Positions 15,949-30,901 of a stretch of DNA of 64,000 bases are shown piece after piece. The notes beneath the pieces are model-generated. The model saw only the letters and a list, made by a program, of their open reading frames with translations. It made no database searches and had not been told where the DNA came from. The DNA is from Pseudomonas fragi (lineage in GTDB: Bacteria; Pseudomonadota; Gammaproteobacteria; Pseudomonadales; Pseudomonadaceae): the NCBI RefSeq assembly GCF_900105835.1, contig NZ_LT629783.1:3184501-3248500 (forward strand), written 5' to 3'. Position 1 is the stretch's first letter, and every line of letters starts with the position of its first letter. Made by a program: the position numbers and the translations under genes.

Positions 15949-15965
15949 GCGCTAAAGTATCATCC
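15949..15965 (+). repeat. TnsB-type binding site 2, left end
   Basis: GCGCTAAAGTATCATCC resembles the terminal TnsB core and is about 145 bases inside the left end. Widely spaced sites at the left end are typical of Tn7. Confidence 0.75.
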
Positions 15966-16002
15966 TAATTTTCGCCCAGGCTCGAAAAATACGGTAAATG
16001 GT

Positions 16003-16020
16003 GAAAATAAAGATTCATCC
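16003..16020 (+). repeat. TnsB-type binding site 3, left end
   Basis: GAAAATAAAGATTCATCC matches the terminal core closely and lies 200 bases inside the left end. The rest of 15821-16316 is AT-rich, holds no supported gene, and forms the left transposon arm. Confidence 0.8.
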
Positions 16021-16316
16021 TTTTCCGATGTTGCCCGTTTCAACACGTAAGCAGTCAGTCAGAAAAAACACATAGATCCAATCCCTAGCGAGCATTGAGC
16101 TCTCTCATCCGTGCCAACTGCTCCAACCCTTGGACGCCCTAAATGCTTACCCAAAAAAATCAACACCTTCTTTTAAAAACACAATCAAAAATGACACCCT
16201 TATATCCATTTAACCTAAACAGCCTTCCCCCCACTGCACTAGCTAGGGCTCGTAGTTCGGCGCAAGGCTGAAGTCGCTTGGCTGCTTCGCTGTGCAGATC
16301 CATGACCCACTTTCCA

Positions 16317-17480
16317 TCAAACTCCCGGTTGTAGTTCCACAAGCATCTCGCGAGTCTTGCCGGCCCGCTCCACTAACAAGACCACAACATCTCCAACGTT
16401 CTTGTCGTCTAGCCGGGCCTGTAATGTGGTGACGTCGTCGACGGCGATACCGTCGATGCTGATAACGCGATCGCCGGGCACGATGCCGCCTGCGGTGACC
16501 TCGACGCCGACGAGCCCGGCCCTGTGCGCCGCCGAGCCCGGCGTCACGCGCAATACGAATACGCCCTTACTGCCGGTCAGCGCCTGCAGACGCGCGTTGA
16601 GCTGCTCATCCACCTCGATGCCCAGCGCCGGACGGATGTACTTGCCGGTCTTTATGAGTTGCGGCACCACGCGCATGACGGTATCGACCGGCACCGCAAA
16701 GCCGATGCCGGCCGAGGCGCCAGACGGACTGTAGATGGCGGTATTGATGCCGATCAGCCGCCCAGCCGAATCGAGCAGCGGGCCACCGGAATTGCCGGGG
16801 TTGATAGCGGCGTCGGTCTGGATCAGGTGGTCAATGGCCGGGCCACTGGCGTCGCCGGAAAGGGTGCGGTCAAGCGCCGAGACGATGCCGGTGGTGAGCG
16901 TCCAGTCGAGCCCGAAGGGATTGCCAATGGCAAAGACCTTTTGCCCCACCTTGAGATCGGCACTGGTGCCCACCGGCACCGCCGGCGGGCGCTTGAAGCC
17001 GACGCCAATCTTGAGTACCGCGATGTCGTGCGCAGGACTGGCGCCAACGAGCGCAGCCTGATAATCGCGACCGTCGGCCAGTTTGACCGTGGCAGACGAT
17101 GCCCCCTGGATCACGTGGAAGTTGGTCACCACGTGGCCGGCATCGTCCCAGATGAAGCCGGAGCCGGTGCCGCGCGGCACGGAAAAGACATTGCGCGACC
17201 AGACGTCACGCACTAGTTGTGCCGTGGTGATGTAAACCACCGACCCGCGCGATTTTTCGAACAGCTCGATGGTGGTTTTTTCGTCGGCGGCCAGGTCGCC
17301 GCGCGGCGTCACCGTGCGCTCCTGCGTTTCGTGGGGACTGAACCAGGCTTCGATGGCGGGCAGGAACTGCCACAGCAGCATGAGTGCGGCGATGCAGCCA
17401 GTGATGACGAGCCAGCGCCGGATGAAGCGGTCCGGCGCCGGGCGGCTGTAGGGGTCGGGGTAGGTCACGTCATTCTCCAT
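16317..17480 (-). CDS. degP: DegP/HtrA-like membrane-anchored serine protease with PDZ domain
   Basis: Degrades damaged proteins in the periplasm. The 387-residue protein has one N-terminal membrane helix (about residues 22-43), a trypsin-like domain with the full triad H122 (VVTNFHVIQ), D152 (AHDIAVLKI) and S231 (NPGNSGGPLL), and a single C-terminal PDZ domain (about 285-380, with PGDRVISIDGIAV). One PDZ and a membrane anchor make it closer to DegS than to two-PDZ DegP in build, although the island literature calls it degP. It is the last gene of the island operon, 8 bases after the htpX stop. No strong ribosome site is visible before its ATG, so translation may be coupled. Confidence 0.92.
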   Translation of the reverse strand: MENDVTYPDPYSRPAPDRFIRRWLVITGCIAALMLLWQFLPAIEAWFSPHETQERTVTPRGDLAADEKTTIELFEKSRGSVVYITTAQLVRDVWSRNVFSVPRGTGSGFIWDDAGHVVTNFHVIQGASSATVKLADGRDYQAALVGASPAHDIAVLKIGVGFKRPPAVPVGTSADLKVGQKVFAIGNPFGLDWTLTTGIVSALDRTLSGDASGPAIDHLIQTDAAINPGNSGGPLLDSAGRLIGINTAIYSPSGASAGIGFAVPVDTVMRVVPQLIKTGKYIRPALGIEVDEQLNARLQALTGSKGVFVLRVTPGSAAHRAGLVGVEVTAGGIVPGDRVISIDGIAVDDVTTLQARLDDKNVGDVVVLLVERAGKTREMLVELQPGV

Positions 17481-17487
17481 GTTGAAA

Positions 17488-18451
17488 TCAGCGCCAAAGG
17501 CCGCCGGTGCGCCAGCGTGGCGGACGTGGTGATACGGTCACCTCGGGGACGAAACGGGCCGATGGAAACGGCGGCATCGCGGGCGGCGGAGCAAGTTCCA
17601 GCAAGCGCTCAATGCGTTCAGCCGTCGCCGGATGCGTGCGCAACCAGGAGGGTTCCGGATTGCCCCATCCGGGCAGCAGCCAGGCGCGCCAGGAGCGGCT
17701 CACCCGCTCGATCTTGGCGAGCGCCGAGGCCAGCCCGTGCGGGTCGCCGGTCAATTCGGCAGCGAGCCGGTCGGCGTCGAATTCGCGCACCCTGGACAAG
17801 CCCAACTGAGCCAGCAAGGCTAGCTGTGGCGCGACCGCCAGTAGAAGCAACGCGGGCCAATTGACTTCCGTGACTCCAAGCAATAGCGCTGGCAAGCTGA
17901 GCACGATCGCAAGCTGCCCCAACAAGGCTAGAAGATGGGTGAGCCGGCTGATGGAATCGGCCAAGCCCATGACACGCAAATCCTCGTTCGCAATATGCGC
18001 GATTTCGTGGCCGAGCACGCCGGTCAACTCGCGGGGCGTGAGGCTACGCAGCAGGCCGTCGGTCAGCGCGATGGCCGCGTGATGCTTCGAACCGGTGGCG
18101 AAGGCGTTGACGACCCCGCTGGGCACGTAGTGCGGTACCGGCACGGCAGGCAGCCCGGCCCGCGCCGCCAGTTCCGCGCAACACAGCCCAAAGATCGGGC
18201 GCTTCATCCGGGTGCAGGGGGCGTGCGCCATACAGCCGCAAGGTCAGCCCGGAGGCGGCCGCCGGTTCGAGCAGCAGGGTGAACCCCGCGGCCGCAAGCG
18301 CCAGCCAAAGCCCGCCGTCACCCAACAGCAGGCTGCCAGCGACGGCGGCAATCCCGAGCAGGGTCAGCACCAACAGCGCGGTTTGCAGGCGATTGAGCCA
18401 GCGATGCCGCGCGCCGACATTCTGCGCGTGGCGCAGATCACGACTGATCAT
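17488..18451 (-). pseudogene. htpX: HtpX-like M48 metalloprotease, frameshifted
   Basis: The zinc protease HtpX removes damaged membrane proteins. Here it is split over two frames. The 5' part (from ATG 18451, MISRDLRHAQN; an ATG at 18478 is also possible) encodes two membrane helices and runs to ...APDLWAVLR. The 3' part continues ELAARAGLPAVPVP in another frame with the zinc motif HEIAH (LGHEIAHIANEDLR), further helices and the C-terminal FDADRLAAEL zinc-ligand region. The join needs removal of one G in the GG at 18174-18175. The first frame stops at 18044. It overlaps psiE by 14 bases. Either a real inactivation, a sequencing error or a slippage site. Confidence 0.8.
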
Positions 18452-18926
18452 CTGAGCTTTCCCCGGCTGTCCGGTCATCGCGCTCGCGCAGCAGCCAGTA
18501 AGTCGCCCCGAGGGCCAGTGTCGCGCCTGCGAGCGCCGCGACCTTGGCGGGGCCGGTCTCCGGGTCGAGGATCACGAATTTACGCGCCAGGGCGATCAGC
18601 CCGATCAGGATCACCGTCTTGACCTGGATGATGCTGTCGCGCCGCAAGGCCACCCGCACGATGGAATGCTTGAACTCCATGGCGATGAGCAGCGTCATGA
18701 TCATGCCGAACACGGTCTGGAAGACCTTGTGATCGAGCGGATTGAACGCATCAATGATCAGCAGGCTGAAGACGATCGAGATCAGCTGCAGCAGCGAGAC
18801 CACGATAATCACGGCAATGATTGCGGACAGCGCGAGCGCGATCACCTGTTCGAAGCGCTCGTAGAACGTCATCACTGCCCATTGGGCGCGAAATGTTTTG
18901 ATCGGGTCTGCTTGCTTTTCCTTCAT
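18438..18926 (-). CDS. psiE: PsiE family membrane protein
   Basis: About 162 residues with four predicted membrane helices (near 30-52, 58-80, 85-100, 112-132) and a highly charged C-terminus. It matches the PsiE (phosphate-starvation-inducible E) family, whose molecular role is unknown. The ATG at 18926 (MKEKQADPIK) is chosen because AGGAG lies six bases upstream; a start five codons earlier lacks one. It begins 11 bases after the GGDEF gene and overlaps htpX. This gene is a standard member of heat-resistance islands. Confidence 0.85.
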   Translation of the reverse strand: MKEKQADPIKTFRAQWAVMTFYERFEQVIALALSAIIAVIIVVSLLQLISIVFSLLIIDAFNPLDHKVFQTVFGMIMTLLIAMEFKHSIVRVALRRDSIIQVKTVILIGLIALARKFVILDPETGPAKVAALAGATLALGATYWLLRERDDRTAGESSDDQS

Positions 18927-18937
18927 CGCCACTCCTC

Positions 18938-19965
18938 TCAATTCTGAAATACTTGTGCACCCACAACTTGGTTGCGCCCTTGTCTTTTTGCCTGGTAGAG
19001 CGCGCTGTCCGCCTGCTGCATCACCTGCTCGGAAGAGTTTAAGCGGACGTCGAGGGGAGCCACCCCCATGCTGGCGCTATAGCTGATCGAACCTCTCCAC
19101 ACACCAGCGCTGTCGCCGCAACGTCCTGACGAAATCGCTCCGCCCATACTTGGGCGTCTTCTATCGATGCCGCTTCCAACAACACAGCGAATTCCTCCCC
19201 CCCAATCCGTGCAGCCATGTCGGTTGCGCGAACATGTTCCCTCAACCGTGAAGCAAAGTGCTTGAGCACCTCATCGCCGCATCCGTGCCCATAGGTATCA
19301 TTGATGCGCTTGAAGTGATCGATATCGCAGAGCACAAGTGCTGCTTGTATCTCCGGGCTGCGTTTGAGGCGCGCCCATTCCAGCTGTAATCGTTCGTTAA
19401 AAGCCCGCCGGTTCGACAAGCCGGTCAAGGGGTCGGTGATCGCCATGCGCAGCAACCGCTGCTCCATTTCCTTGCGAGAAGAGATGTCGAGCAGAGAGCC
19501 CACCATCAATTGCCTGCCCGTGTCACCCAGCCAACGACCGCGATCCAGCACCCAAATCCAAACGCCGGATCGATGACGAACGCGGTACTCGCACTCCAAT
19601 CGCTCCGACGGATTTTCTTGGTAAGCGCGCACCTTTGCCAGAACGACCGGTAAATCCTCCGGATGAATACGCGCTTGCCATGCGGCATGGGTGGCGCCAA
19701 TCTCCTCGTCGGAGGTCAAGCCGAACATCGCCAGACTGCGGGCAGAAAGCCTGAAGCTGTCGGTGGCAAGATCCCACTCCCAGAATCCCAACTCTGCGCC
19801 TTCCAGGGCGATGGCGATCCGTTCGTTGTCGTCGATTTTCGCTTGTTGGCGATGCTTCAGCTCGTCACGCCTGTGGCGATTGGTACGAGCAAAACGCCAT
19901 AACGCAACCGCCATGCCAACATTGGCAAGTAGCGACACCATCAGCCAGATGGTCGGCCCGTTCAT
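18938..19965 (-). pseudogene. PAS-GGDEF diguanylate cyclase gene with a C-terminal frameshift
   Basis: Would make cyclic di-GMP. Read from 19965: an N-terminal membrane helix (about 5-25), a PAS domain (about 45-165, ending GSLLDISSRKEMEQ) and a GGDEF domain with the catalytic motif GGEEF (255-259) preceded five residues earlier by an inhibitory-site RxxD (RATD, 246-249). Near 19089, after ...VCGEV, the frame changes; the lost end (SMGVAPL... ADSALYQAKRQGRN) continues in another frame to 18938. One base appears missing. The truncated product lacks the last strands and helix of the GGDEF fold and is probably inactive. Its start overlaps the kefB stop by ATGA, so it belongs to the island operon. 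Confidence 0.8.
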
Positions 19966-21668
19966 GGTCTATCCCCGCCTGACTGACTGAGTGCCTGCCG
20001 TAATTCCTCGATCCGGTGGTCGACTTGGTCGGCGTTGATGCCCAACATCAACAGTACCTGCTCGGCCAGTCCCAGTCCCGCAGCCAGGTACAACGGGTAC
20101 AGTCTGACATTGGGCAGATTACGCAAAAGCTGGGCATCCGTTACGCGCTCAGTGGCCACCACCACGGACAAGCTCAGGCGGCGGTCGAGAACCGCCTGAG
20201 CGATACGCAGGGCCGTCTGCGGACGGGCAAACGTCAGCACCACCAGGCGGGCATGGGCCAATCCGGCGGCGGCCAGGGTGTCGAGCCGACTGGCATCGCC
20301 ATACGACACCGGCGCCCCCATCGCACGCCCCGCTTCGACCCGTTGGCGGTCCGATTCCAGCAGCAAATGCGGTATGCCTGCCAGGCGCAGCGTTCGGCTC
20401 AGCAGCAGCCCGACGTCATCCGCCCCACAGATGATCACATGGTCGCGCAACGACCGCGCCCGCTCGGCGACTTCGCCTTCTTCGGCCTGCGGTGGCTGAC
20501 CGAGTGCGCCCGAGCGGCTGAAAGCCCGCGCCCATCGGTCATGGTGTCGGATCAGGAGCGGTGCCAACCCCATGCTCAACACCAGCGCCACCAGCATCGG
20601 TTGCACCATGGTGGCGGCGATCAGGTGCTGCTGCATGACCATGCCCAGGAGCAGCAGCGCAAACTCGCCGCCATGACCCAGCACGATGCCTGCGCGCCAG
20701 GCGTCGAGCGCCGACAGGCGGGTTGCGCGCAGCGCCAGAAAGTTCAGCCCCATCTTGAGAGGCACCAAGGCCAACAGCCAACCCAGTACCGCCAGCGGTG
20801 CGGCCACGATCTGCGCGGTGTCCAGCTGCAGGCCAATGGTCACGAAGAACAGGCCCGACAGCACATCACGAAAGGGCTTGAGGTGGCTTTCCATGTGGTG
20901 CCGGAAGTCGCTCTCGCCCAGGACCATGCCGGCGAGAAAGGCCCCCAGGGCGGCGGATACGCCGACGGCGTGTGCAGCAGCGGCTGCCGCCACGACCACG
21001 CACAAGGAGACCAGCACGAAGGATTCTTCGTGGCCCTGCCGCGCCACCCAGCCCAGCAGGCCATGCAACAGACGACGCGAGGCAACCGCCGCTGCCGCGA
21101 ACAACACCAGCACGCCCAACACTTCGAGCAGCACGCTCTCGATCTTCGGCGAGTCGCCGCGCGCCCAGATCGCCAGCAGGGCCAGCAGGGGCACGCTGGC
21201 CAGGTCCTGAAAGACCAGCACGGCGATGGCACTGCGGCCGTGGCGGGTGGTGAGCTCGCCTTGGTCGGCCAGCTGTCGGCTGACCAGCGCCGTGGACGAC
21301 ATGGCCGCTGCGGCGCCGAGCAGTGCAGCGCTCTGAGCTGGCTGACCCAACCCGATCAGCACCAGGGTCAGTGGCGCGGCCACGACGACCATCTGCAAGC
21401 TGCCGGACGCCAGTACGGTCTTGCGAGTGAGCCAGAAGTGCCCCAGCGAGAATTCCAGTCCGACCATGAACAGCAGCAGGGCCACACCCAGTTCGGATAT
21501 GAAAGTCAACGCCTCTCCCGGCGCGATCACACCGCTGACCGAGGGGCCCAGCAAGGCGCCGACGGCGAGGTAACCCAGCAAGGCGGGTACTCTGAACGCC
21601 GCCGTCGCCACCACCGCGAGGCTGCACGCCGCCAGCAGGATCAGGGTAGTGCCGAGCAAATCCTGCAT
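19962..21668 (-). CDS. kefB: KefB-like cation:proton antiporter with RCK/TrkA-N domain
   Basis: A 568-residue CPA2-family transporter. About twelve membrane helices fill residues 1-390 (family segments LLLFMVGLEFSLGHFW, ALGAFLAGMVLGES, GLFFVTIGLQLD, GHGGEFALLLLG). The cytoplasmic nucleotide-binding RCK domain follows (from HVIICGADDVGLLLSRTL, about 412-530). KefB-type proteins expel potassium with proton entry and acidify the cytoplasm to protect against electrophiles; the role in heat resistance is not settled. It starts three bases after trx and overlaps the GGDEF gene by ATGA. Confidence 0.92.
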   Translation of the reverse strand: MQDLLGTTLILLAACSLAVVATAAFRVPALLGYLAVGALLGPSVSGVIAPGEALTFISELGVALLLFMVGLEFSLGHFWLTRKTVLASGSLQMVVVAAPLTLVLIGLGQPAQSAALLGAAAAMSSTALVSRQLADQGELTTRHGRSAIAVLVFQDLASVPLLALLAIWARGDSPKIESVLLEVLGVLVLFAAAAVASRRLLHGLLGWVARQGHEESFVLVSLCVVVAAAAAAHAVGVSAALGAFLAGMVLGESDFRHHMESHLKPFRDVLSGLFFVTIGLQLDTAQIVAAPLAVLGWLLALVPLKMGLNFLALRATRLSALDAWRAGIVLGHGGEFALLLLGMVMQQHLIAATMVQPMLVALVLSMGLAPLLIRHHDRWARAFSRSGALGQPPQAEEGEVAERARSLRDHVIICGADDVGLLLSRTLRLAGIPHLLLESDRQRVEAGRAMGAPVSYGDASRLDTLAAAGLAHARLVVLTFARPQTALRIAQAVLDRRLSLSVVVATERVTDAQLLRNLPNVRLYPLYLAAGLGLAEQVLLMLGINADQVDHRIEELRQALSQSGGDRP

Positions 21669-21671
21669 CGG

Positions 21672-22112
21672 TCAGCGTCCCACCTGTGCAGAGGCCCAGC
21701 GCACGATGTCCTGCGAGCCCATGGCGCCTGCCTGGCGGGCGATCTCACGTCCGCCCTGGAACAGGGCGAGCGTCGGAATGCTGCGGATACCGAACTGCGC
21801 GGCCAGGTGGGGCTCAGCCTCGGTGTTCACCTTTGCCAGCCTGATCCCGGGTTCGAGCTGGCGCGCGGCTTGTTGAAACTGCGGCGCCATCATCTTGCAC
21901 GGCCCGCACCAGGGCGCCCAGAAATCGACCAGCAGCGGCAGATCGCTGCGCTCCACGTGGCGCGAGAACGTCGCCGTCGTCAACTCGATGGGCTCGCCGG
22001 TGAACAAGGGCTGCTGGCAGCGGCCGCAGTTGGGACGATCCGCGAGCTTGGCGGCCGGCACGCTGTTGATGGACTGGCAATGTGGGCAGACGATGTGGAG
22101 TTCATTTTTCAT
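21672..22112 (-). CDS. trxC: Thioredoxin, TrxC (thioredoxin 2) type
   Basis: A 146-residue cytoplasmic disulfide reductase. It has the N-terminal zinc-binding extension of thioredoxin 2 (CPHC at 9-12 and CGRC at about 29-32) and the active site WCGPC in VDFWAPWCGPCKMM, then the cis-proline region IRSIPTLALF. AAGGAAG lies upstream of the ATG. It overlaps the 3' end of orf11 by 11 bases and is followed by kefB three bases on. Zinc-finger thioredoxins are induced by oxidative stress and can also act as chaperones, which suits the island. Confidence 0.93.
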   Translation of the reverse strand: MKNELHIVCPHCQSINSVPAAKLADRPNCGRCQQPLFTGEPIELTTATFSRHVERSDLPLLVDFWAPWCGPCKMMAPQFQQAARQLEPGIRLAKVNTEAEPHLAAQFGIRSIPTLALFQGGREIARQAGAMGSQDIVRWASAQVGR

Positions 22113-23247
22113 GGTTCGCTTCCTTGGACTGCGGTGAGGTTGCCTCGCTTCGGATCACCGACATCGCCGACCAATTTACGCCTTTGATCCAATCGTTCCC
22201 GTCTTCGCTCACGCCGGCATCTTCCACGTGAGCCGCAATGAAGGCTTCGGCTTGAATGAGCCCCGCTCTGACAGCATCTATCTTATTAGGCATCCGCAGG
22301 ATTTCAGCAGCGCAGCCTGCATCCAGCCCATCCACCCGGATAAGCAGAAAAATGCGGCGCCACAAGTGCGGCATACCCTTCATCAGGTCGAATGCAAATG
22401 CGAATTCGCTCGATCTGTCACCAATTTCCTCCTGTTCGGCGATTGCTGCTGGGTCGGGAAGCCGACTATCAGCCATGACGTCGGCCAGGCTGAGTGCGTC
22501 ATCAGGCTGATAAAACTCGTAGAACTCTTCCTCTACCATGGCCTCCGCCATGTCCTGCGCATCCGCTTCGACCGGCGCATCCAGCGAAACGGCCTCGCCA
22601 TATTGCCGGCTGTTTGCCACTTCGCGATCAATGACGGCAAAAAGATGCTTCAAAAGATCGAGGTAAGCGGCATTTTCTTCTGGAACGGATGTCCATACCG
22701 ATTCAGCCAGAGCAATCGCTTCGTCCACCACGTCGTGCAGCGTCGGATAATCGCGAGGCAAATCACCGGCGGCATGCAGATAAGCCAACTCGCGTTGCGC
22801 AACGGCCTCAACCTTCGGCAGCAGCGTCTCGATTATCCCGCGTGCTTGCTGGACGACAGAGGCAGGTTGAGTGTCGATCCGCGCCTTGAGCTCGCGCAAG
22901 CGTTCACGACGCGCCTTACGCTTGATTTGATCCTGAGCGCTCAGCCGATCAAAGTGCTTCTTGGCCTGCCGGAACAACGCCTGCGCTAGCATGTGCGCGA
23001 GAGGCGTCAGATCGTTATGCGATGCAGTGACGCTGACGATTTTTTTGCCCGGCAAGTGCATGTGGCCACTGGCCGTTAAGCGAGATCCTTTTTTCGCGCG
23101 TTCGAGGACGATTTGAAGACGTACCGAATCTTCGGAGCGCTTTTCGATCAGCGGCTTGAGAGCGGGTTCAACCGCTTTTTCTACAGACATTCGCCAAGGT
23201 TCATGAAATTCTTTTTCGACGAGTCGATAGCTATATTGTATACGCAT
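22102..23247 (-). CDS. Island orf11: HPF/RaiA-like domain plus sigma-region-4-like C-terminus
   Basis: About 381 residues, function unproven. Residues ~1-105 resemble a long ribosome-hibernation factor (HPF/RaiA) fold: VRLQIVLERAKKGSRLTASGHM followed by VSVTASHNDLTPLAHMLAQAL and a basic helix. The middle is a long helical linker rich in acidic residues. Near residues 290-345 the pattern FDLMKGMPHLWRRIFLLIRVDG, then LDAGCAAEILRM, looks like sigma factor region 4 (weak, by eye). The ATG at 23247 has AAGGG seven bases upstream; a TTG two codons earlier is less likely. It sits between hdeD and trx, its usual place in heat-resistance islands. Confidence 0.75.
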   Translation of the reverse strand: MRIQYSYRLVEKEFHEPWRMSVEKAVEPALKPLIEKRSEDSVRLQIVLERAKKGSRLTASGHMHLPGKKIVSVTASHNDLTPLAHMLAQALFRQAKKHFDRLSAQDQIKRKARRERLRELKARIDTQPASVVQQARGIIETLLPKVEAVAQRELAYLHAAGDLPRDYPTLHDVVDEAIALAESVWTSVPEENAAYLDLLKHLFAVIDREVANSRQYGEAVSLDAPVEADAQDMAEAMVEEEFYEFYQPDDALSLADVMADSRLPDPAAIAEQEEIGDRSSEFAFAFDLMKGMPHLWRRIFLLIRVDGLDAGCAAEILRMPNKIDAVRAGLIQAEAFIAAHVEDAGVSEDGNDWIKGVNWSAMSVIRSEATSPQSKEANHEK

Positions 23248-23345
23248 GCTCAAGCCCTTTAGGGTTGTCCGCCCAGGTGAGTGGACCCGGGTGATTGGAT
23301 ATGTTGATTTTCAAAGATGATCTTACGGTTTGGTTTTTCACGCCC

Positions 23346-23957
23346 TTACCGCTGACGCGCTTTGCGCAAACGCCAACTAAGAAGCAAAAGAGTCATACCG
23401 AAGATCGCAGCATGGAAACCCAATACCCAGCCCGCGGCCAGAAATGATTCGATCGGGCGGGTAAAAAACATCCATAGGATGATCGCACCGAGGAGCACGG
23501 AAAGCAGCCCGCTGAGGGCAAGCCAGATCTCGCCCTTGATTTCCCGGCGCAGACGAACGGCGGCGGATATCTCCAGCATACCGGTGAAAATTGCCCAGAA
23601 TGCCACGCTTACCCACAAGAAATAGGCCAACGCCAAAGTGGCAGCCAGAGGGGCAACTACCACAACGACACCGGTGAGTATGCCGACGATGCCGCTGAAC
23701 AACAGCCAGCCCCAGCGCTGCTTTTGCCGCATTTGCCGCACCGCTGCAACCAGGTTGAACGCACCATTGACCAAAGAAAATGCGCCGAACACTATCGTCA
23801 TGGCGAACAAAGCCGAGTGTGGCATCCAGAATGCGAGGACTGCAAAAATCAACGCGAATATGCCGCGCAGCGCAAACAACCACCAATTTTGGGTCAGTGA
23901 ACACACGGCATCGGCAGGGTTATCCGCATTCGAATCGGCGATGGTATTTGCATTCAT
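23346..23957 (-). CDS. hdeD: HdeD family acid-resistance membrane protein
   Basis: A 203-residue inner-membrane protein with six predicted helices in three hairpins, each with the HdeD-like pattern of small residues (ALRGIFALIFAVLAFWMP, GAFSLVNGAFNLVAAV, SGIVGILTGVVVVVAPLAA). HdeD is linked to acid resistance at high cell density in E. coli; the mechanism is unknown. AAGGAG precedes the ATG by seven bases. A strong hairpin separates it from yfdX2, and a 98-base gap separates it from orf11. Confidence 0.9.
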   Translation of the reverse strand: MNANTIADSNADNPADAVCSLTQNWWLFALRGIFALIFAVLAFWMPHSALFAMTIVFGAFSLVNGAFNLVAAVRQMRQKQRWGWLLFSGIVGILTGVVVVVAPLAATLALAYFLWVSVAFWAIFTGMLEISAAVRLRREIKGEIWLALSGLLSVLLGAIILWMFFTRPIESFLAAGWVLGFHAAIFGMTLLLLSWRLRKARQR

Positions 23958-24009
23958 GCGATATCTCCTTGATGGATCATGAGATCAGGAAAATCAAGCC
24001 TTCATGGCG

Positions 24010-24036
24010 AAGAGAGGGGCTATTCGCCCCTCTCTT
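24010..24036. terminator. Intra-operon hairpin between yfdX2 and hdeD
   Basis: AAGAGAGGGGC and GCCCCTCTCTT form a perfect 11-bp stem with a 5-base loop. On the transcribed (minus) strand no T-run follows, so partial termination or mRNA stabilisation is likelier than a full stop. Confidence 0.6.
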
Positions 24037-24042
24037 GCGGTT

Positions 24043-24930
24043 TTAGAACAGCTTTGACAGTCTCGCCTTGATTTCATCGAGCCAGCCTTTTCCGCTCCCG
24101 CCTCCGGCCGTCTTTTCCTTGACTTTCTTGAGTTCAGAGTACAGGGGCTCAAAGTCCTTCTTTTTACCATAGCCCAGCAGTTCTGCCATTTCCAACTGCT
24201 GCCGGGCTTCGTTTAACAAGTCCTGCAGGCGTTCACCGGACGCCTCGCTGCGCTGGCCATCTTCTGTCAAGGTCTCGGCGCGCTTGACGAGCAGTTTGGC
24301 GCGCAGGATGGGCAGCGGGATGACGCTGAGTGTCTCGACGAGCGTGCCGAGCGCCAACTGCAGCGCGGCCTTGGCCTCTTCGATCTTGCCCTGATCGATC
24401 AGCGGCACGACGGATTTCACGGCTGCCGGGTAAGTCGCCAGAGGGATGTTGGTGACCGCAATCACGATTTCGCTGGCCAGCAATGCCAACACGCGACGAG
24501 CGCGTTGCACCTCGCCATGTTTGAGGGCATCCAGCGCCTCGTCAGTCATCGCCTCAACGGTTTCCGTGTTGGCGAACAAGTCGTGCACGATGGTGCGCAC
24601 ATCAACGGGGGCCAGGGCGAGCGTGGGTTCGCGTGCAACGATCAGCTCCAGCTTTCCCGTCACTTCGGCCAGCGTTGCCAGTGCTCGCGCGGATTCTTTT
24701 TCGTCCAGGGCCGCCAGCGCTGATTTGGTCAGCGCCAAGGCCGAGACGGCCTCATCGAGGACTTGTTTACGTTTGTCTGCCGCTTGCGAGTCCGTTTCCT
24801 TCTGAACCTCAGGCTGTACCTCCGTGACGACTTCAGGCTTGGGCTCTGGTCTGGCAGGAAGGCTGCTTACCGCGGCCTGTTCGTTCGTGCCTTCGTTGAT
24901 CGCGTTGGGATTCGATGTTTGCTCATTCAT
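24043..24930 (-). CDS. yfdX2: YfdX family protein (second island copy)
   Basis: A 295-residue largely helical protein. The first ~60 residues are a low-complexity Glu/Pro-rich tail with no signal peptide; the YfdX domain follows (VSALALTKSALAALDEKES, LATYPAAVKSVVPLIDQGKIEEA). It is clearly a paralogue of the adjacent YfdX1: both contain LALAPVDVR, ASEIVI and LGYGKK(K/E)DF and end GWxDExKxRxxKLF. YfdX proteins are reported as periplasmic or chaperone-like; this copy looks cytoplasmic. GAGG lies upstream of the ATG. Followed by a hairpin and hdeD. Confidence 0.88.
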   Translation of the reverse strand: MNEQTSNPNAINEGTNEQAAVSSLPARPEPKPEVVTEVQPEVQKETDSQAADKRKQVLDEAVSALALTKSALAALDEKESARALATLAEVTGKLELIVAREPTLALAPVDVRTIVHDLFANTETVEAMTDEALDALKHGEVQRARRVLALLASEIVIAVTNIPLATYPAAVKSVVPLIDQGKIEEAKAALQLALGTLVETLSVIPLPILRAKLLVKRAETLTEDGQRSEASGERLQDLLNEARQQLEMAELLGYGKKKDFEPLYSELKKVKEKTAGGGSGKGWLDEIKARLSKLF

Positions 24931-25032
24931 GGTGATATGCCTCGTATGAGATAGTGAAAATAGGGGAATCTATTGGGGCCTACTGCGAATATCGCGAGAC
25001 TGACCGATGGAGCAGTCGGCCCCTTCATCACC

Positions 25033-25941
25033 TCAAAACAGCTTTTGGATGCGCGTCTTCAACTCGTCGAACCATCCATTGCCGCTTTTGCCACCAGCCG
25101 ACTTTTGCTCAATGGACTTCACCTGATCGAAGATGGGTTTGAAGTCCTCCTTCTTGCCATAACCCAGGATTTGCGCCAGCTCGATCTCCGTGCGCACGGA
25201 CGACAGCAAGGTGCTGAGCTCCTCGTTCTGCTTGGCATCGCGCTTGTCAGTCTCGGCCAGCTTTTCAGCTTTTGCTATCGCGGCCTCGGCCCGTAGCACG
25301 GGCAGAGGGAGTACAACTTGGATGACCACCAGCGTGTTCAGTGCTCGGGCGAGCTCTGCTTTGGCTTCGTCGATCTTGCCGCTGTCGACGAGCCGTGCAG
25401 CCGACTTGATCGCTGCCGGGTACGTTGCCATGGGCAGGTTGTCGGTTTCGATCACGATTTCGCTGGCCAGATTGGCAACGATGGGCCGGGCCTTTTGCAC
25501 CTCGCCATCACCCAACAACTCCCGAGACAACTTGACCGCTTTCTTTACCGATTCCACGTTGGCGTGGATATCATGGGTGATGACGCGTACATCGACCGGC
25601 GCCAAAGCAAGTTTGGCGTCGCGTGCCAATACCAGTTCCAGCTTTCCGGTGGCCAGTTCCAGCGCAGCGAGCGCCTCCTTGGTCTTATTTGCATCAAGGA
25701 GGGTCAAAGCCTCCTGGGTCTTGGTGAGCGCCGTGATGGCGTCCTGAGTGAGCTCGGAACGCTTTTTTTCGGCTTCCTGGGCGGCCTTGTCGTCTACTTG
25801 TGGCTGCGCCGCCTTGGGTGCGACAGAGGGCGCTGCAGCGCTTGGACTTGCCGCCGATTGGGCCAAAACCGGTCCACTCAGTCCGATGCAGACCGCCAGG
25901 GCAAGTGCGGAACGGATGTATTGGGGCTGTTTGATATTCAT
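25033..25941 (-). CDS. yfdX1: YfdX family exported protein (first island copy)
   Basis: A 302-residue YfdX protein with a signal peptide (MNIKQPQYIRSALALAVCIG, cleavage near VLAQSA), so likely periplasmic, unlike its neighbour. The YfdX domain shares LELVLARDAKLALAPVDVR and NLPMATYPAAIKSAARLVDSG with YfdX2. The ATG at 25941 is preferred with TGGAG about nine bases upstream; a TTG five codons earlier is possible. It lies 21 bases after the second hsp20 gene. Export of one copy and not the other suggests division of labour across compartments, which is inference. Confidence 0.88.
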   Translation of the reverse strand: MNIKQPQYIRSALALAVCIGLSGPVLAQSAASPSAAAPSVAPKAAQPQVDDKAAQEAEKKRSELTQDAITALTKTQEALTLLDANKTKEALAALELATGKLELVLARDAKLALAPVDVRVITHDIHANVESVKKAVKLSRELLGDGEVQKARPIVANLASEIVIETDNLPMATYPAAIKSAARLVDSGKIDEAKAELARALNTLVVIQVVLPLPVLRAEAAIAKAEKLAETDKRDAKQNEELSTLLSSVRTEIELAQILGYGKKEDFKPIFDQVKSIEQKSAGGKSGNGWFDELKTRIQKLF

Positions 25942-25962
25942 GATGTTGGACTCCAATTGAAG

Positions 25963-26421
25963 TTAATTGACTGAAATTTCAATCTGCTTCGGCTTGGCTT
26001 GCTCGGCCTTGACAAGCCGCACTTCCAGCACGCCGTCTTTCATCGAAGCCGTCACCTTGGTCGGATCAACGTTGTCAGGTAAGACAAAGCTGCGCACAAA
26101 GCGGCCATACGCACGTTCGATGCGGTGGAATTTCTTGCCCTGCTCCTCTTTTTCCAGTTTGCGCTCGCCGCTGATGGTGAGTACGCCGTTTTCCGCGCTG
26201 ACGCGCACGGCATCCTTGGGGACCTCCGGCAGATCCAGTTTGAGGAGGAATGCGTTCTCATCCTCGCTGATGTCCACCATTGGTGCCCAGTCCGCCGTGG
26301 TCATGGCTTCGTTGCCGGTACGGGCGCCCTGTCGCTGGGGGGGCCGTCCCAACATCGTCGCCAGGCGGTTTTGCAATTCATCCAGTTCCCGGAAGGGGTC
26401 CCACGGAGTCAATGCAGACAT
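25963..26421 (-). CDS. Small heat-shock protein Hsp20 (island copy 2)
   Basis: A 152-residue ATP-independent holdase that keeps unfolding proteins soluble for ClpK or other disaggregases. The alpha-crystallin domain spans about residues 45-140 (PMVDISEDENAFLLKLDLP, GVLTISGERKLEKEE, FVLPDNVDPTKVTASMKDG, GVLEVRLVKA), followed by a short C-terminal extension with IEI, the I-x-I motif used in oligomer assembly. The ATG at 26421 (MSALTPWDPFRELDEL) has AAGGAG seven bases upstream. It lies directly downstream of clpK. Confidence 0.93.
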   Translation of the reverse strand: MSALTPWDPFRELDELQNRLATMLGRPPQRQGARTGNEAMTTADWAPMVDISEDENAFLLKLDLPEVPKDAVRVSAENGVLTISGERKLEKEEQGKKFHRIERAYGRFVRSFVLPDNVDPTKVTASMKDGVLEVRLVKAEQAKPKQIEISVN

Positions 26422-26567
26422 ATCGGTTCTCCTTGAACAATGCCGGCGAATTGGATGACGCACCGAACAGAGCCGCCGGCGCACTCTGAATAGCGCCTGC
26501 TACTTTTCGTTTCCATCAAGAACAAGTCCTTGGGTCAATTGAAGGATCACGACAGCCTCCCCATGAC

Positions 26568-29417
26568 TCAAGATTCGCCGCCCGCTGACTTTTTCTTGCG
26601 CGCAGGCTTGCTCGCGTCGCTCGGCGGCGTCTCGGCCACGTTCGCGACATCGGGCTTCTCAGGCTCGGCCGGCTTTGCGGGTGGCTCCTGGCGCTCGAAG
26701 ACCACCCGTTCGGCCTTGTCGTCCCAGCGTGCGCTGGCGTGATCGCCCTTGCCGATTCCGCCGCCGAGCATCTCGCGTGCCAGCGCGGTTTCCAGCTCGC
26801 TGCGGATCAGGCGCTTGAGTTCACGCGCACCGAACTCGGGCTTGTAGCCTTCCTCCGCGAAGTGGTCGATCAAGGTCTGATCGAAGGTCAGCGTCACGCC
26901 CTGGCTGGCGGCGTTGCGGGCCACACGATCGAGCTGCAGGCCGACGATATGGCGGATCTCCTCCTTGCCCAGCGCATGGAAGACGATGATCTCGTCGATG
27001 CGGTTGATGAACTCGGGGCGGAAGTGTCCGCGCAGCACGTCCATCACCTCGGACTTGGTCTTCTCGTATTCCTCGCCGGCGGCGCTACGGGCCTTCAGCC
27101 GACGCTGGATGATGTCCGAGCCCAAGTTCGAGGTGGCGATGATGATGGTATTGGTGAAATCCACCACCCGGCCCTTGCCGTCGGTGAGCCGCCCGTCGTC
27201 GAACACCTGCAGCAGGATGTTGTAGACGTCGGGGTGAGCCTTCTCGATCTCGTCCAGCAGCAACACGCTGTAGGGCTTGCGACGCACCTTCTCGGTGAGC
27301 TGGCCGCCCTCGTCATAGCCCACATAACCCGGAGGCGCGCCCACCAGGCGTGCCACGGTATGGCGTTCCCCGTACTCGGACATGTCGATGCGCAGCAGCG
27401 CACCTTCATCGCCATAGATGGACTCGGCCAGCGCCTTGGCGAGCTCGGTCTTGCCCACGCCGGTCGGCCCGAGGAACAGAAAAGTCGCCACCGGCTTGCC
27501 GCCTTCGCGCAGCCCCGCGCGCGACAACCGCACGGCATCGGCCACCGCGCGCACCGCTTCGTCCTGGCCCACCAGGCGCTCGTGCAGCCGCTGTTCCAGA
27601 TGCAACAGCTTCTCGCGTTCTTCCACCGTCAGCTCGTTGACCGGAATGCCGGTCAGGCGCGAGACGATCTGCGCGACATGCTCGGCCTTGACTTCGGCGC
27701 TGCCCGAGGCGCGCTCGCGCTCCCAATCTTCGATGAGCTTCTTGAGTTCGGCCTCTTTTGCCTCGATGCGCTTGCCCAGCTCGGCGGCCTTGTCGTACTG
27801 CTTGCGCGAGGCCATGTAGTCCTGCTCACGCCGCAACTGGTGCAGTTCGGACTCCAGCTCTTGTACGGCCACTGGGCGAGCCGTGGCCGACAGCTTCACG
27901 CGTGCGGCCGCCTGGTCAAGCAGGTCGATGGCCTTGTCAGGCAAAAAGCGCGCGGTGATGTAGCGGTCCGACAACTCGGCGGCGGCGATGATCGCATCCT
28001 CGGTGATGCTGACCTTGTGGTGCGCCTCGAAGGTGTCGCGCAGGCCGCGCAGGATCATCATGGTCTGCGCTACCGTCGGCTCGGGCACCATCACCGGCTG
28101 GAAACGACGCTCCAGCGCGGCGTCCTTCTCGATGTACTTCTGATACTCGTTGAGCGTGGTGGCGCCGATCAGGTTCAGCTCGCCGCGCGCCATCATCGGC
28201 TTGAACACGTTGGCCACGTCCAGCCCGCCTTCGCCGCCACCCTGGCCGGCACCGACGATGGTGTGCACTTCATCGATGAAGAGAATCATCTCGCCCTGGT
28301 GCTCGGTCACTTCCTTGAGCACCTTCTGCACGCGCTCCTCGAACTCGCCGCGATACTTGGCGCCGGCCACCATGGCGTTGATGTTGAGTTCCACCAGACG
28401 CTTGTCGCGCAGCGTCTCGGGCACTTCGCCGGCGACCATCCGCTGCGCCAGTCCTTCGACAATGGCGGTCTTGCCGACGCCGGGCTCACCGATCAACACC
28501 GGGTTGTTTTTCTTGCGCCGGGCCAGCACCTCGATGGTGGTCTCGATCTCCTGCGCACGGCCGATGACCGGATCGAGCTTGCCCTCGCGCGCCATCTTGG
28601 TGAGGTCGCGCGAATACTTGTCGAGTTCCGGCGTATTGGTCGGCGTCTCGGTACGGCCGTCCTCGGCCCCCTTGCCGACCACCTTGCTTACCTGCTGGCG
28701 CAGCGCTTGCGGCGTGAGGCCGTAACGGCGCAGCAGGTTGGCCGCCAAACCTTCGCCTTCCTCGGCGAGCCCGATCAGGAAATGCTCCGGCCCGACATAA
28801 GAGTGGCCGAGTTCGTTGGATGCCACGAAAGCGCGGCTGAGCGCGTCCTTGACCCGGGGCGACACGCCGATCTCGCCCTCGAACGGCTTGTCGCCGCGCT
28901 TGGCTTCGGATTCGATCTGGCGCTTGAGGTCATCGACCTTGATCTTGAACTGCCCCAGGATGGTCTTGACCACATCGCTGTCGGATAGCGCCAGCAGCAG
29001 GTGTTCGGTATCAACTTCGGCGCGCCCGAACTCTGCAGCGTGTCGGGCGGCCTCCTGCAATAGGGCCTCGGACTGTTCGCTGATACGGCTGGCGAGCCCA
29101 CTGCCGCGACGGCGCGCAGTGCCCGTACCGGCCGGGGCGGGTTCGCCGAACGAGGCATCGACCACCTCGTCGCTATCGGCCGCCATGGACGGCGAATCGT
29201 CACCGATGCGGAAGAAGTCGCTGCCGAGGAAGTCTTCGAACAAGCCGCTGCGCGAGCCAAACAAGGCTTCCAGCGGCGAGACGGTGCGCTTTTGCTGGCG
29301 CACCAGTTGGCGATAGTGATCGTCACACAACAGCATGGTGCTGTGACGACCATTGAGATTGGCTTCCACCCGCACTGTGGCGGGCTGGCCGCAGACCTGG
29401 CATTGTTTTCTGGCCAT
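26568..29417 (-). CDS. clpK: ClpK/ClpG disaggregase (ClpB/ClpC-type AAA+ ATPase)
   Basis: The core heat-resistance gene: a stand-alone protein disaggregase. About 949 residues. It has an N-terminal zinc finger (CQVC at 6-9, CDDH at 31-34), a linker, a Clp N domain (about 110-250), AAA1 with Walker A GEPGVGKT (310-317) and Walker B ILFIDEVH (378-385), a middle coiled coil (about 510-570), AAA2 with Walker A GPTGVGKT (650-657) and a C-terminal Ala/Lys-rich tail. The zinc finger and tail mark ClpK rather than ClpB. The ATG at 29417 is seven bases after AAGGAG; another ATG two codons upstream is too close. Flanked by two hsp20 genes. Confidence 0.96.
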
Positions 29418-29446
29418 GCTCATGCTCCTTGAGAGGACTGATTTGA

Positions 29447-29473
29447 CGAGGCGCCGAAGGTCACGGCGCCTCG
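29447..29473. terminator. Intra-operon hairpin between hsp20 copy 1 and clpK
   Basis: CGAGGCGCCG and CGGCGCCTCG form a perfect 10-bp stem with a 7-base loop in the 97-base gap. There is no T-run. It may set the ratio of Hsp20 to ClpK by partial termination or by protecting the hsp20 mRNA end. Confidence 0.6.
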
Positions 29474-29514
29474 CCATTCACTTGGTTTTTCTGTAGAGAA
29501 CGAGCCGATCGGCG

Positions 29515-30084
29515 TCAGCCGTTGATCGGGATCGAGCGGCCCTGCTTGGGCGCACTGGCCTCGCGCTTTTCCATCGTGATCGTGAGTACGCCGTTCTTGA
29601 AAGCGGCCTTGATCGTGTCCTGGTTGGCATCGGTCGGCAGGTTCAGAGCGCGCTGAAAGCTGCCGTAGGAGCGCTCTACCCGGTGGAAACCGCCGTCTTT
29701 CGTTTCCTGCTCCTGACGCTTTTCACCGCGAACCAGCAGCACGTCGTTGTCGAGCGTGATCTGGATGTCTTTTTCCTCGACGCCGGGTACTTCCAGGGCG
29801 ATCTTGTACTGCTTGTCGGTCTCCTGGATGTCCAGCGCCGGCTTCAGCAGGCCCGGCCAGTCCGACGGCCAGCGTGGCATGGCCAGCGCCGGAAAGCCGA
29901 AGCCTCGAAACGTGTCGTCGAACAGGCGGTCGATCTCGCGGTGCAATTGCAGGATGGGACTGACGGGCCCACCCGCTACCGGCAGGTCATTGCGCTGCAC
30001 CGGCAGCGAGGCAGTGCTCTGTTGTTCTTCCTGCTCCTTCTTGAACCAGTTCCAGGGAGCCAACTTCTTGAAATCAATGTCCAT
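29515..30084 (-). CDS. Small heat-shock protein Hsp20 (island copy 1)
   Basis: A 189-residue alpha-crystallin holdase. It has a longer N-terminal arm (KKLAPWNWFKKEQEEQQS, and LHREIDRLFDDTFRGFGFP) and an alpha-crystallin domain at about 85-180 (PALDIQETDKQYKIALEVPG, VLLVRGEKRQE, RALNLPTDANQDTIKAAFKN, GVLTITMEKRE). It ends RSIPING, with an I-x-I motif. GGAGG lies about seven bases before the ATG. It is only moderately similar to copy 2, so the pair is not a recent duplication. Second gene of the island operon. Confidence 0.93.
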   Translation of the reverse strand: MDIDFKKLAPWNWFKKEQEEQQSTASLPVQRNDLPVAGGPVSPILQLHREIDRLFDDTFRGFGFPALAMPRWPSDWPGLLKPALDIQETDKQYKIALEVPGVEEKDIQITLDNDVLLVRGEKRQEQETKDGGFHRVERSYGSFQRALNLPTDANQDTIKAAFKNGVLTITMEKREASAPKQGRSIPING

Positions 30085-30118
30085 GTCACACCTCCAGAAA
30101 AATTGAAAAACGAGTTAC

Positions 30119-30400
30119 TCAAGCCCTTTGCCTGCTGCGACGGGCAGTGCGCCCAGGCGACACGGGCTGCTCGGATGACTTCTGCTGTTCACGCTTGCGC
30201 ATCACCTCCTTCTTTGCTCCGGCTCGGGTCTGATCATTGATCCACTGATCGATTTCACTTTGACGAAACCGCCACGTCCCGCCCACCTTGAAAGCCGGAA
30301 TTTCCCCGTGCGCGGCGAGCCGATAAAGCGTCCGCTTGCCGACTTTCAAGTACGCAGCCAATTCATCGAGCGTGAAAATCACCTGTAGGTGCGCTTTCAT
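30119..30400 (-). CDS. Excisionase/MerR-type helix-turn-helix DNA-binding protein
   Basis: A 93-residue protein at the head of the island operon. Residues ~8-60 form an excisionase-family winged HTH: FTLDELAAYLKVGKRTLYRL followed by GEIPAFKVGGTWRFRQSEIDQWI. The tail is Lys/Arg-rich (RRSRQRA at the end). It is probably an autoregulator of the island, although excisionase-like proteins can also bend DNA in recombination. The ATG at 30400 has GGAGAGG just upstream; an upstream in-frame start at 30493 lacks support. First gene in known heat-resistance islands too. Confidence 0.82.
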   Translation of the reverse strand: MKAHLQVIFTLDELAAYLKVGKRTLYRLAAHGEIPAFKVGGTWRFRQSEIDQWINDQTRAGAKKEVMRKREQQKSSEQPVSPGRTARRSRQRA

Positions 30401-30447
30401 CTCACCCTCTCCAATCGCGTCGCTTTGCGGTTCCGGCCAAGGAAATC

Positions 30448-30494
30448 CTTGCAAGACTTTGCAAGATATTGCGCTTACCAGGACAAACTTCAAG
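30448..30494 (-). promoter_or_regulatory. Candidate promoter and operator of the island operon
   Basis: On the minus strand CTTGAAG (30488-30494) is followed after 16 bases by CAATAT (30466-30471), which fits a sigma-70-like layout and partly a heat-shock sigma-32 layout. Just downstream are two TTGCAAG copies ten bases apart (30449-30455 and 30459-30465), a possible operator for the HTH protein. Read by eye, unproven. Confidence 0.4.
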
Positions 30495-30623
30495 AGTCAA
30501 TGTACAGCGATCTCCCGCCCCATTGATGCAGGTCAACTGCTCAGGCAAGGCGCAGCGGGGCGGCCTGATCAGGCCATGGACAGCGCCTGGCTCGTCAGCC
30601 TGCGTGTGCCACAGGCGCCTCGA

Positions 30624-30898: not shown

Positions 30899-30901
30899 TC
30901 C

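What the first reader, a model, noticed from the sequence alone, without database searches (positions are those of the whole stretch)
16317..30400. Heat-resistance / protein-quality-control island delivered as Tn7 cargo
The gene set HTH, Hsp20, ClpK, Hsp20, YfdX x2, HdeD, orf11, Trx, KefB, PsiE, HtpX, DegP matches the LHR/tLST/TLPQC island. Such islands are known on plasmids and other mobile DNA. Here the island is inside an element that inserts at a neutral, conserved site beside oriC, which gives stable inheritance and a high gene dosage in growing cells. I see no ftsH copy.
Basis: partly seen in the sequence, partly recalled or inferred. Interest (0 to 1): 0.75.

Follow-up and report, generated by a model that had tools for sequence, protein, structure and literature searches.

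The report
Heat-resistance island riding a Tn7-like transposon
A known package of heat- and chlorine-survival genes sits here inside a complete-looking Tn7-like jumping element next to the glmS gene of a Pseudomonas; near-identical copies sit in Pantoea and E. coli chromosomes and in enterobacterial plasmids, and the package's temperature-sensing gene is broken in most copies examined.

Summary
Confirmed, and largely already published. Window 15795-39501 (23,707 bp) is a structurally complete Tn7-like transposon: 18-bp inverted ends, three end repeats per side, tnsABCDE, ACTGA target duplication, 25 bp from the glmS stop. [quoted passage not shown] The pairing was reported for P. aeruginosa CF39S (PMC8012707).

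Here tdcA and htpX are frame-broken. FtsH is absent but its last 48 bp remain.

Added here: of 16 two-ended copies that I picked and read, 15 have perfect 5-bp duplications, at 14 sites (four at glmS). tdcA is full-length in 2 of 18 copies, with at least four distinct breaks, while hsp20c, clpK, hsp20GI, yfdX1/2, hdeD and trx are full-length in every copy that spans them. orf11, of unknown function, is predicted to join a ribosome-hibernation (HPF/RaiA) fold to an ECF-sigma/PhyR-like fold.

Against a general vehicle: 1270 plasmids carry clpK, 45 the tns block, and the five tns genes are whole in 12 of 19 copies. Phenotype and transposition were not tested.

The parts
15790..15794 (.). Target-site duplication ACTGA, left copy
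15795..15812 (+). Left terminal inverted repeat (18 bp)
   Evidence: exact inverted copy of the right end
15795..39501 (.). Whole Tn7-like element, 23,707 bp
   Evidence: TIRs, TSDs, tns genes
15808..16023 (+). Three dispersed left-end repeats (TnsB-site-like) at 15808, 15953, 16008
   Evidence: 6 motif hits in the element, all at its ends
16317..17468 (-). degP/htrA-like protease (orf16)
17488..18451 (-). htpX/M48 protease (orf15), frame-broken at about codon 92/93
   Evidence: same break in 3 other non-enteric copies
18438..18926 (-). psiE-like (orf14)
18941..19965 (-). tdcA, thermosensory PAS-GGDEF diguanylate cyclase, frame-broken near the 3' end (remaining ORF 19039-19965, 308 aa; GGEEF at residue 255)
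19962..21668 (-). kefB-like K+/H+ antiporter
21672..22112 (-). thioredoxin trxGI
22102..23247 (-). orf11: predicted HPF/RaiA fold (residues 1-108) plus ECF-sigma/PhyR-like fold (about 129-352)
23346..23957 (-). hdeD (DUF308)
24043..24930 (-). yfdX2
25033..25941 (-). yfdX1
25963..26421 (-). small heat-shock protein hsp20GI
26500..26547 (-). 48-bp remnant of the ftsH 3' end (scar of cls-ftsH loss)
   Evidence: coordinates worked out from its alignment
26568..29417 (-). clpK/clpG-GI stand-alone disaggregase (949 aa; ORF open to 29477)
29515..30084 (-). small heat-shock protein hsp20c
30119..30400 (-). orf1/dna, HTH_17 regulator
30430..30500 (-). Upstream region of the island operon with a promoter-like element and a direct repeat
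   Evidence: closely similar in 14 of 16 copies aligned; promoter activity not tested
30520..31757 (.). Insertion-sequence relics (IS66 C-terminal fragment and others) between island and tnsE
31758..33380 (-). tnsE
33373..34875 (-). tnsD (TniQ/TnsD)
34877..36487 (-). tnsC
36480..38567 (-). tnsB transposase
38554..39381 (-). tnsA endonuclease
39440..39501 (-). Right end: three tightly spaced repeats and terminal inverted repeat
39502..39506 (.). Target-site duplication ACTGA, right copy
39526..41361 (-). glmS, whose 3' end is the attTn7 recognition site

Best explanation
This is a tLST (locus of heat resistance) carried as the whole cargo of a structurally complete Tn7-like transposon that inserted at attTn7 downstream of glmS. 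Shown from sequence: boundaries, target duplication, five full-length tns genes with the known TnsA and TnsB catalytic residues, cargo gene content, and near-identical copies at glmS and at other sites in other genera. Inferred: TnsABC+TnsD directs insertion to glmS, and a second route (TnsE in classical Tn7) to the other sites, most of them on plasmids, so the element shuttles the island between chromosomes and plasmids. Inferred from published work on the same genes: sHsp20s hold unfolding proteins, ClpK resolubilises aggregates, YfdX/HdeD protect the envelope, and Trx/KefB serve in oxidant stress, giving heat and chlorine tolerance. In this copy the ftsH, htpX and thermosensory tdcA functions are probably absent, leaving the proteostasis and envelope modules plus Trx, KefB, PsiE, DegP and orf11.
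For: Exact 18-bp TIRs and ACTGA duplications; 25 bp from the glmS stop; tnsABCDE 99-100% identical to an E. coli plasmid copy, without in-frame stops; TnsA and TnsB align to Tn7 structures 1f1z and 7pik with catalytic residues conserved (residue numbers recalled). Of 16 copies in which both ends were read (window, L115-L118, L120-L128, Pantoea, P. fragi), 15 have perfect 5-bp duplications, at 14 distinct sites: 4 at glmS (window, E. coli 873.10, E. coli mussel strain, Pantoea), 7 on plasmids, 3 elsewhere in chromosomes. E. coli 873.10 carries one copy at glmS and one in an IS1 copy on its plasmid. ClpK 2162.5 bits, cut-off 1900.
Against: No transposition, transcription or heat assay is available. 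L118 lacks a duplication and L119, L129 and L130 keep only the right end, and only 12 of 19 copies that span the tns block have all five genes whole and free of stops, so some copies can no longer move by themselves. Most clpK plasmids are not in the complete element: 1270 plasmids carry at least 80% of clpK, 45 at least 80% of the tns block. Divergence is uneven: bins in orf11-hdeD fall to 76-82% DNA identity against some copies whose tns genes are at least 95% identical in most bins, so recombination inside the cargo also spreads genes.
Confidence: 0.92

Rival explanations
1. The element is a fossil at attTn7: it arrived once, is now immobile, and its cargo spreads mainly by homologous recombination or as part of larger plasmids.
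For: Some copies have lost, split or stopped tns genes or lack an end (P. fragi NMC25 plasmid, G116, L119, L122, L123, L124, L126, L127, L129, L130). Cargo shows mosaic divergence.
Against: In the window all five tns genes, both ends and the duplication are whole. 98.7% DNA identity over 22 kb with the Pantoea copy, which sits at its own glmS with a different duplication, is best read as recent movement of the whole element.
Confidence: 0.15
2. The heat-resistance cargo is silent or decaying here and confers little: broken tdcA and htpX and lost cls-ftsH are the start of general decay.
For: Two broken frames and one deletion scar in the cargo.
Against: hsp20c and clpK are full-length without stops in 19 of 19, and hsp20GI, yfdX1, yfdX2, hdeD and trx in 20 of 20, copies that span them. 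dN/dS of window against the E. coli plasmid copy is below 0.25 for 10 of 11 genes, and 0.33 for yfdX1, which has very few changes. The promoter region is similar in 14 of 16 copies. By published work ftsH is not needed for tLST heat resistance in E. coli (PMC8290217 passage).
Confidence: 0.1
3. tdcA breaks reflect sequencing or assembly errors rather than repeated loss.
For: The window's own tdcA break was not found in the four other copies aligned with it.
Against: The enteric breaks recur in 12-13 records, though these are related, and the Pantoea/G116 break in two. Deleting the corresponding gene (orfE) in E. coli FAM21805 did not change biofilm (PMC5383660 section 25), as expected of a broken gene; that copy lies in three pieces.
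Confidence: 0.15

Closest known systems
Tn7-like transposon with tdcA and LHR in P. aeruginosa CF39S (Almblad et al. 2021, PMC8012707)
   Same: Tn7-like element in the chromosome, LHR-syntenic cargo, tdcA in the operon (sections 6, 7 and 10 read).
   Different: The CF39S sequence was not among the records retrieved here, so ends, site and gene-by-gene identity could not be compared. TdcA there is 342 aa and active; here the frame is broken.
tLST2/LHR2 on E. coli pFAM21805 and S. Senftenberg pSSE-ATCC-43845 (PMC5383660, PMC5347186)
   Same: Inside the same Tn7-like element with near-identical tns genes and TIRs. A word-start search finds neither 'Tn7' nor 'tns' in the main text of those two papers.
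   Different: They carry cls and ftsH and have orf11 interrupted; tdcA is broken at other points.
tLST1/LHR1 of E. coli (Mercer et al. 2015, gene list as given in PMC8290217 section 12)
   Same: Same gene order without cls and ftsH.
   Different: tLST1 has no tdcA in that list; the E. coli AW1.7 LHR lacks a tdcA ortholog. Its sequence was not compared here.
Pantoea agglomerans HJS002 chromosomal copy (L003/L168/L171)
   Same: At glmS, same htpX break, same cls-ftsH scar, 98.7% DNA identity over 22 kb.
   Different: Other duplication (GGGCC), diverged clpK 5'/hsp20c segment, a different tdcA break.
Tn7
   Same: TnsABCDE, repeats at both ends, glmS target 25 bp downstream, 5-bp duplication (Tn7 features partly recalled).
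   Different: Proteins are homologous but diverged from Tn7 (TnsB 627 bits against Tn7 TnsB); no antibiotic-resistance integron seen; cargo is tLST.

Membership tests
tLST / LHR / TLPQC | core dna-hsp20-clpK(clpG) | tested here: met
tLST / LHR / TLPQC | envelope module yfdX1-yfdX2-hdeD | tested here: met
tLST / LHR / TLPQC | oxidative module orf11-trx-kefB-psiE-htpX-degP | tested here: met
   all present in order; htpX frame-broken
tLST / LHR / TLPQC | G+C about 61% | tested here: met
   61.6%; published value
tLST / LHR / TLPQC | confers heat, pressure or chlorine tolerance | not testable with these tools
   needs cells
tLST2 (LHR2) | cls, ftsH and orfC/orfD present | tested here: not met
   cls and ftsH absent, 48-bp ftsH scar, orf11 uninterrupted
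tLST1 (LHR1) | no diguanylate cyclase gene | tested here: not met
   tdcA present though broken
Tn7-like transposon | heteromeric transposase tnsA+tnsB with tnsC | tested here: met
Tn7-like transposon | TniQ/TnsD target selector and insertion 3' of glmS | tested here: met
Tn7-like transposon | terminal inverted repeats, end repeats, 5-bp target duplication | tested here: met
Tn7-like transposon | transposition activity | not testable with these tools
   needs an assay
TdcA thermosensory diguanylate cyclase | 342-aa PAS3-GGEEF protein in one frame | tested here: not met
   308-aa ORF, frame broken near codon 293-301
HPF/RaiA ribosome-hibernation domain (orf11 N-terminus) | fold | tested here: met
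HPF/RaiA ribosome-hibernation domain (orf11 N-terminus) | ribosome binding | not testable with these tools
   -
ECF sigma factor / PhyR sigma-like (orf11 C-terminus) | sigma2-sigma4 fold and family match | tested here: inconclusive

The most novel reading that the evidence does not exclude
This Tn7-like lineage is an active two-target shuttle that moves the heat-resistance island between glmS sites and plasmids across Pseudomonas, Pantoea and Enterobacteriaceae; while it moves, its thermosensory c-di-GMP switch (tdcA) is lost again and again but the disaggregase/chaperone core is kept; and orf11 is a ribosome-hibernation/sigma-like fusion that links translation arrest to transcription during heat survival.
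Probability: 0.25. Interest if true: 0.6.

Novelty: new member of a known kind. Interest (0 to 1): 0.38.

Why it matters
The tLST is called transmissible, but the 2021 review says data on complete genomes were too scarce for a systematic analysis of its flanking elements, Tn7 among them (PMC8290217 section 11). Here two published plasmid islands (pSSE-ATCC-43845, pFAM21805) prove to be cargo of one Tn7-like element with clean ends and duplications, which supplies a concrete vehicle for a fraction of tLSTs. The uneven fate of cargo genes (chaperone core kept, thermosensor lost) and the predicted fold of orf11 give testable questions about which parts of the island pay their way.

Tried and rejected
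The empty site could not be shown. The gene left of the element lies elsewhere (no glmS match within 1.5 kb) in the 5 relatives that have it. Of 18 glmS loci of relatives (L149-L166), 17 show no match to the window's left flank within about 1.5 kb and one (L153) a 28-bp match to 15766-15793. Insertion rests on TIRs plus duplication instead. A heat-shock sigma-32 promoter upstream of dna was considered; the CTTGA...GCGCAATAT stretch is similar in 14 of 16 copies aligned (not L055, L108) but fits a sigma-70-like reading as well, so no claim is made. RNA thermometers: one sub-threshold Rfam match (ALIL, 21.2 bits, cut-off 50), rejected. The HTH gene matches MAD1 of a phage-defence system at 79 bits (NCBIfam cut-off 80) and 32.8 bits in PADLOC; taken as a shared HTH domain, since it is the tLST orf1. 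Phage carriage: no match in 50,697 phage records. A first reading that Pantoea and G116 share the window's tdcA break was withdrawn after alignment showed different positions. A first count of 15 of 19 copies with all five tns genes full ignored in-frame stops; one search gives 12 of 19. The end sequence also occurs in G163, G391 and G063 in fetched stretches with no match to these tns or cargo proteins; in G391 both ends lie 1 kb apart without a duplication (L112). That short element was not counted among the 16. The species of the host was not established.

Literature: searched for tLST/LHR/clpK with or without Tn7. The full-text search for 'Tn7' with 'locus of heat resistance' gave PMC8012707, PMC8290217 and PMC13104619. 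What I saw: PMC8012707 passages and sections 6, 7, 10; PMC8290217 outline, passages and sections 6, 9-12; PMC5383660 passages and sections 21, 25; PMC5347186, PMC8407380, PMC7685784, PMC13104619 and PMC12383092 passages only; others search listings only. The fusion reading of orf11 was looked for and not seen there (listings and passages); automated names for relatives ('RaiA', 'sigma24') already exist. Subscription-journal papers are mostly not covered. Lee, Mercer and other works are cited only through these papers.
Full report
What is there. The minus strand of 16317-30400 reads, in transcription order, dna/orf1, hsp20c, clpK, hsp20GI, yfdX1, yfdX2, hdeD, orf11, trx, kefB, tdcA, psiE, htpX, degP. 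This is the tLST/LHR gene order with tdcA added. The ClpK model is exceeded (2162.5 bits, cut-off 1900). G+C of the island is 61.6%, the published value being about 61% (PMC8290217 section 11). The host's own genome has one match over the ClpK cut-off and weaker matches in frames of 856 and 759 aa, the sizes of ClpB and ClpA (names inferred).

The vehicle. Between the island and glmS lie insertion-sequence relics and tnsE, tnsD, tnsC, tnsB, tnsA. The ends are exact 18-bp inverted repeats at 15795 and 39501, flanked by ACTGA on both sides. A TnsB-site-like motif occurs six times in the element, three dispersed at the left end and three 20 bp apart at the right, and seven times in the whole 64 kb. 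The right end is 25 bp from the glmS stop codon. TnsB and TnsA align along most of their length with Tn7 TnsB (7pik, 627 bits) and TnsA (1f1z), and residues 3-301 of TnsD with Tn7 TnsD (8glu); the TnsA E/D/K and TnsB D/D/E positions, whose numbers I recall, are conserved in the alignments. dnaA starts 22.7 kb beyond the right end.

The same element elsewhere. Against 72,556 plasmid records the whole element matches S. Senftenberg pSSE-ATCC-43845 at 100% coverage and 96.5% identity; 28 records are covered at 80% or more. Against 5,426 E. coli genomes, 166 match and 19 are covered at 80% or more. From the listed best hits I picked 16 places (L115-L130) and read their ends, plus Pantoea agglomerans HJS002 and the P. 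fragi NMC25 plasmid. The choice favours well-covered copies. Sixteen copies show both ends (14 of the 17 made up of the window and L115-L130, plus Pantoea and P. fragi); 15 have a perfect 5-bp duplication (not L118), at 14 distinct sites because L121 and L128 share one. Four sites are at glmS: window, E. coli 873.10, an E. coli mussel strain, Pantoea. Seven are on plasmids and three elsewhere in E. coli chromosomes. Strain 873.10 has a glmS copy and a plasmid copy inside an IS1. L119, L129 and L130 keep only the right end; L119 shares its right flank with L121/L128, and L118, L129 and L130 share theirs. All five tns genes are full-length and free of stops in 12 of the 19 copies that span them; tnsD has an in-frame stop in L122, L126 and L127, tnsB in L124, and L119, L123 and the P. 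fragi plasmid have split or lost genes.

Limits of the vehicle claim. On plasmids, 1270 records hold at least 80% of clpK, 45 at least 80% of the tns block and 60 at least 80% of the 522-bp left end. These lists were not intersected, but the complete element can hold only a small part of plasmid tLSTs. In the 60 rows shown of 116 records that match the tns block, 18 Klebsiella plasmids hold only a 1,076-bp tnsE piece. The insertion-sequence relics next to the island match 1275 plasmids, 63 at 80% coverage or more, so they go with the island more widely than the tns genes do. Among 398 Pseudomonas genomes 25 have a ClpK/ClpG-type match at E <= 1e-200, 12 at 90% identity or more and 13 at 61-64%. 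Six of 396 have at least 2 kb of tnsAB. The two are shown together only in the window and on one contig of G116, where tnsC and tnsD are lost; G255 has them far apart (3.2 Mb and 0.5 Mb), and in G269 they lie on different contigs. Of the ten genomes behind loci L001-L004, L009, L011, L013, L056, L060 and L072, only Pantoea (L003) holds the end sequence with up to one mismatch. So the pairing is real but uncommon in the genus.

Broken and lost parts. Tblastn with the intact proteins of the E. coli 873.10 plasmid copy shows two frame breaks in the window: htpX at about codon 92/93 and tdcA near codon 293-301 of 342. The htpX break is shared with Pantoea, G116 and the P. fragi plasmid and with none of the 16 enteric copies, so it marks one lineage. 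tdcA is full-length in 2 of 18 copies that carry it (E. coli 873.10 plasmid, P. fragi NMC25); L129 and L130 have none. The breaks differ: one near codon 19/20 in 12 enteric copies (L115 also lacks the first 18 codons), one near codon 254-256 in the same 12 (in L123 in a different frame), one shared by Pantoea and G116, and one in the window alone. CF39 carries yet another, published break (PMC8012707 section 6). In FAM21805, whose tdcA (taken to be orfE, from its place between orf13 and orf14) lies in three pieces here, removal of orfE did not alter biofilm (PMC5383660 sections 21 and 25). By contrast hsp20c and clpK are full-length without stops in 19 of 19, and hsp20GI, yfdX1, yfdX2, hdeD and trx in 20 of 20, copies that span them. 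Others vary: dna/orf1 is full-length in 11 of 19 (absent in L116, L119, L121, L128; diverged or partial in L122, L125-L127), cls in 15 of 16, ftsH in 10 of 16, orf11 in 9 of 20, kefB in 18 of 19, psiE in 19 of 20, htpX in 16 of 20; degP has a stop in L126. So the regulator is not kept everywhere, which narrows the 'core' to the chaperone, disaggregase, envelope and thioredoxin genes. Counts are of records, many closely related, so they are not independent events. The window lacks cls and ftsH: relative to the cls-ftsH copy, about 3.2 kb is missing and the last 48 bp of ftsH remain, as in Pantoea, P. fragi and G116.

Mosaic cargo. In 500-bp bins most of the tns block is 99-100% identical to several E. 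coli copies and 90-99% to others, while hdeD-orf11 bins are 100% identical to E. coli G3/10, ABWA45, Pantoea and G116 but 76-83% to the other copies that match there, and the clpK 5' part is diverged in Pantoea and G116. Cargo therefore also recombines within the element. dN/dS of window against the 873.10 plasmid copy is below 0.25 in 10 of 11 genes and 0.33 in yfdX1; for tdcA, P. fragi against that copy gives 0.28.

How it likely works. Published work on the same gene families assigns holding to sHsp20s, stand-alone disaggregation to ClpK/ClpG, heat and chlorine protection to YfdX/HdeD, and chlorine-linked protection to the oxidative module with KefB (PMC8290217 passages and sections 9 and 10). 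I infer that this host gains heat and oxidant tolerance from the intact genes and does not have a working TdcA switch; the loss of only the last part of the GGDEF domain has not been tested in anything I read. Insertion by TnsD at glmS is well supported by position; use of TnsE for plasmid sites is by analogy with Tn7.

Novelty. The combination of Tn7-like element, LHR and tdcA was published for P. aeruginosa CF39S (PMC8012707) and repeated in a 2026 review (PMC13104619, passages). Kamal et al. mention Tn7 elements among those that flank tLSTs. I found no report, in the open papers searched (mostly listings), of the duplications at many sites, of LHR2 plasmids as cargo of this element, or of repeated tdcA loss. 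Hence: a new member of a known kind with useful additions.

Noticed in passing
window 15760-15793: Just left of the element lies a sequence resembling the end of another Tn7-like element; similar strings stand near glmS in relatives L150, L153 (28-bp match) and L154, so attTn7 looks repeatedly used.
   Followed up: partly
window 11544-12108: Array of about 130-bp repeats (four copies of 137 nt at 93-100%), REP-like.
   Followed up: no
window 4196-11433: Three consecutive SPFH/Band-7 genes and a heavy-metal P-type ATPase beside a cyclopropane fatty acid synthase, outside the element.
   Followed up: no
window 14733-15695: Gene with an acetyltransferase domain fused to a GreA/Rnk-like domain; found in 6 of 29 genomes searched (own genome included), with no glmS within 1.5 kb in the 5 relatives.
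   Followed up: partly
L172 11898-17436: The P. fragi NMC25 meat plasmid with a tns-deleted copy of the element also carries the mrkABCDF type 3 fimbria cluster, as does pFAM21805 in print.
   Followed up: no
window 30430-30500: Conserved stretch upstream of orf1 with two direct TCTTGCAA repeats next to a promoter-like element, a candidate operator for the orf1 HTH protein.
   Followed up: partly
H94-H111 (PLSDB): 18 Klebsiella plasmids in the rows shown hold only a 1,076-bp tnsE 3' fragment at 98.1%, perhaps a relic of this element; what lies beside it was not looked at.
   Followed up: no
G255:C1: A Pseudomonas genome with a ClpK 99% identical to the window's but one in-frame TAG reported, in a tLSTa-like island without tns genes beside it.
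   Followed up: no
L112 (G391:C11): Two copies of the element's end sequence (one with a mismatch) about 1 kb apart, no duplication: possibly a short non-autonomous relative.
   Followed up: no
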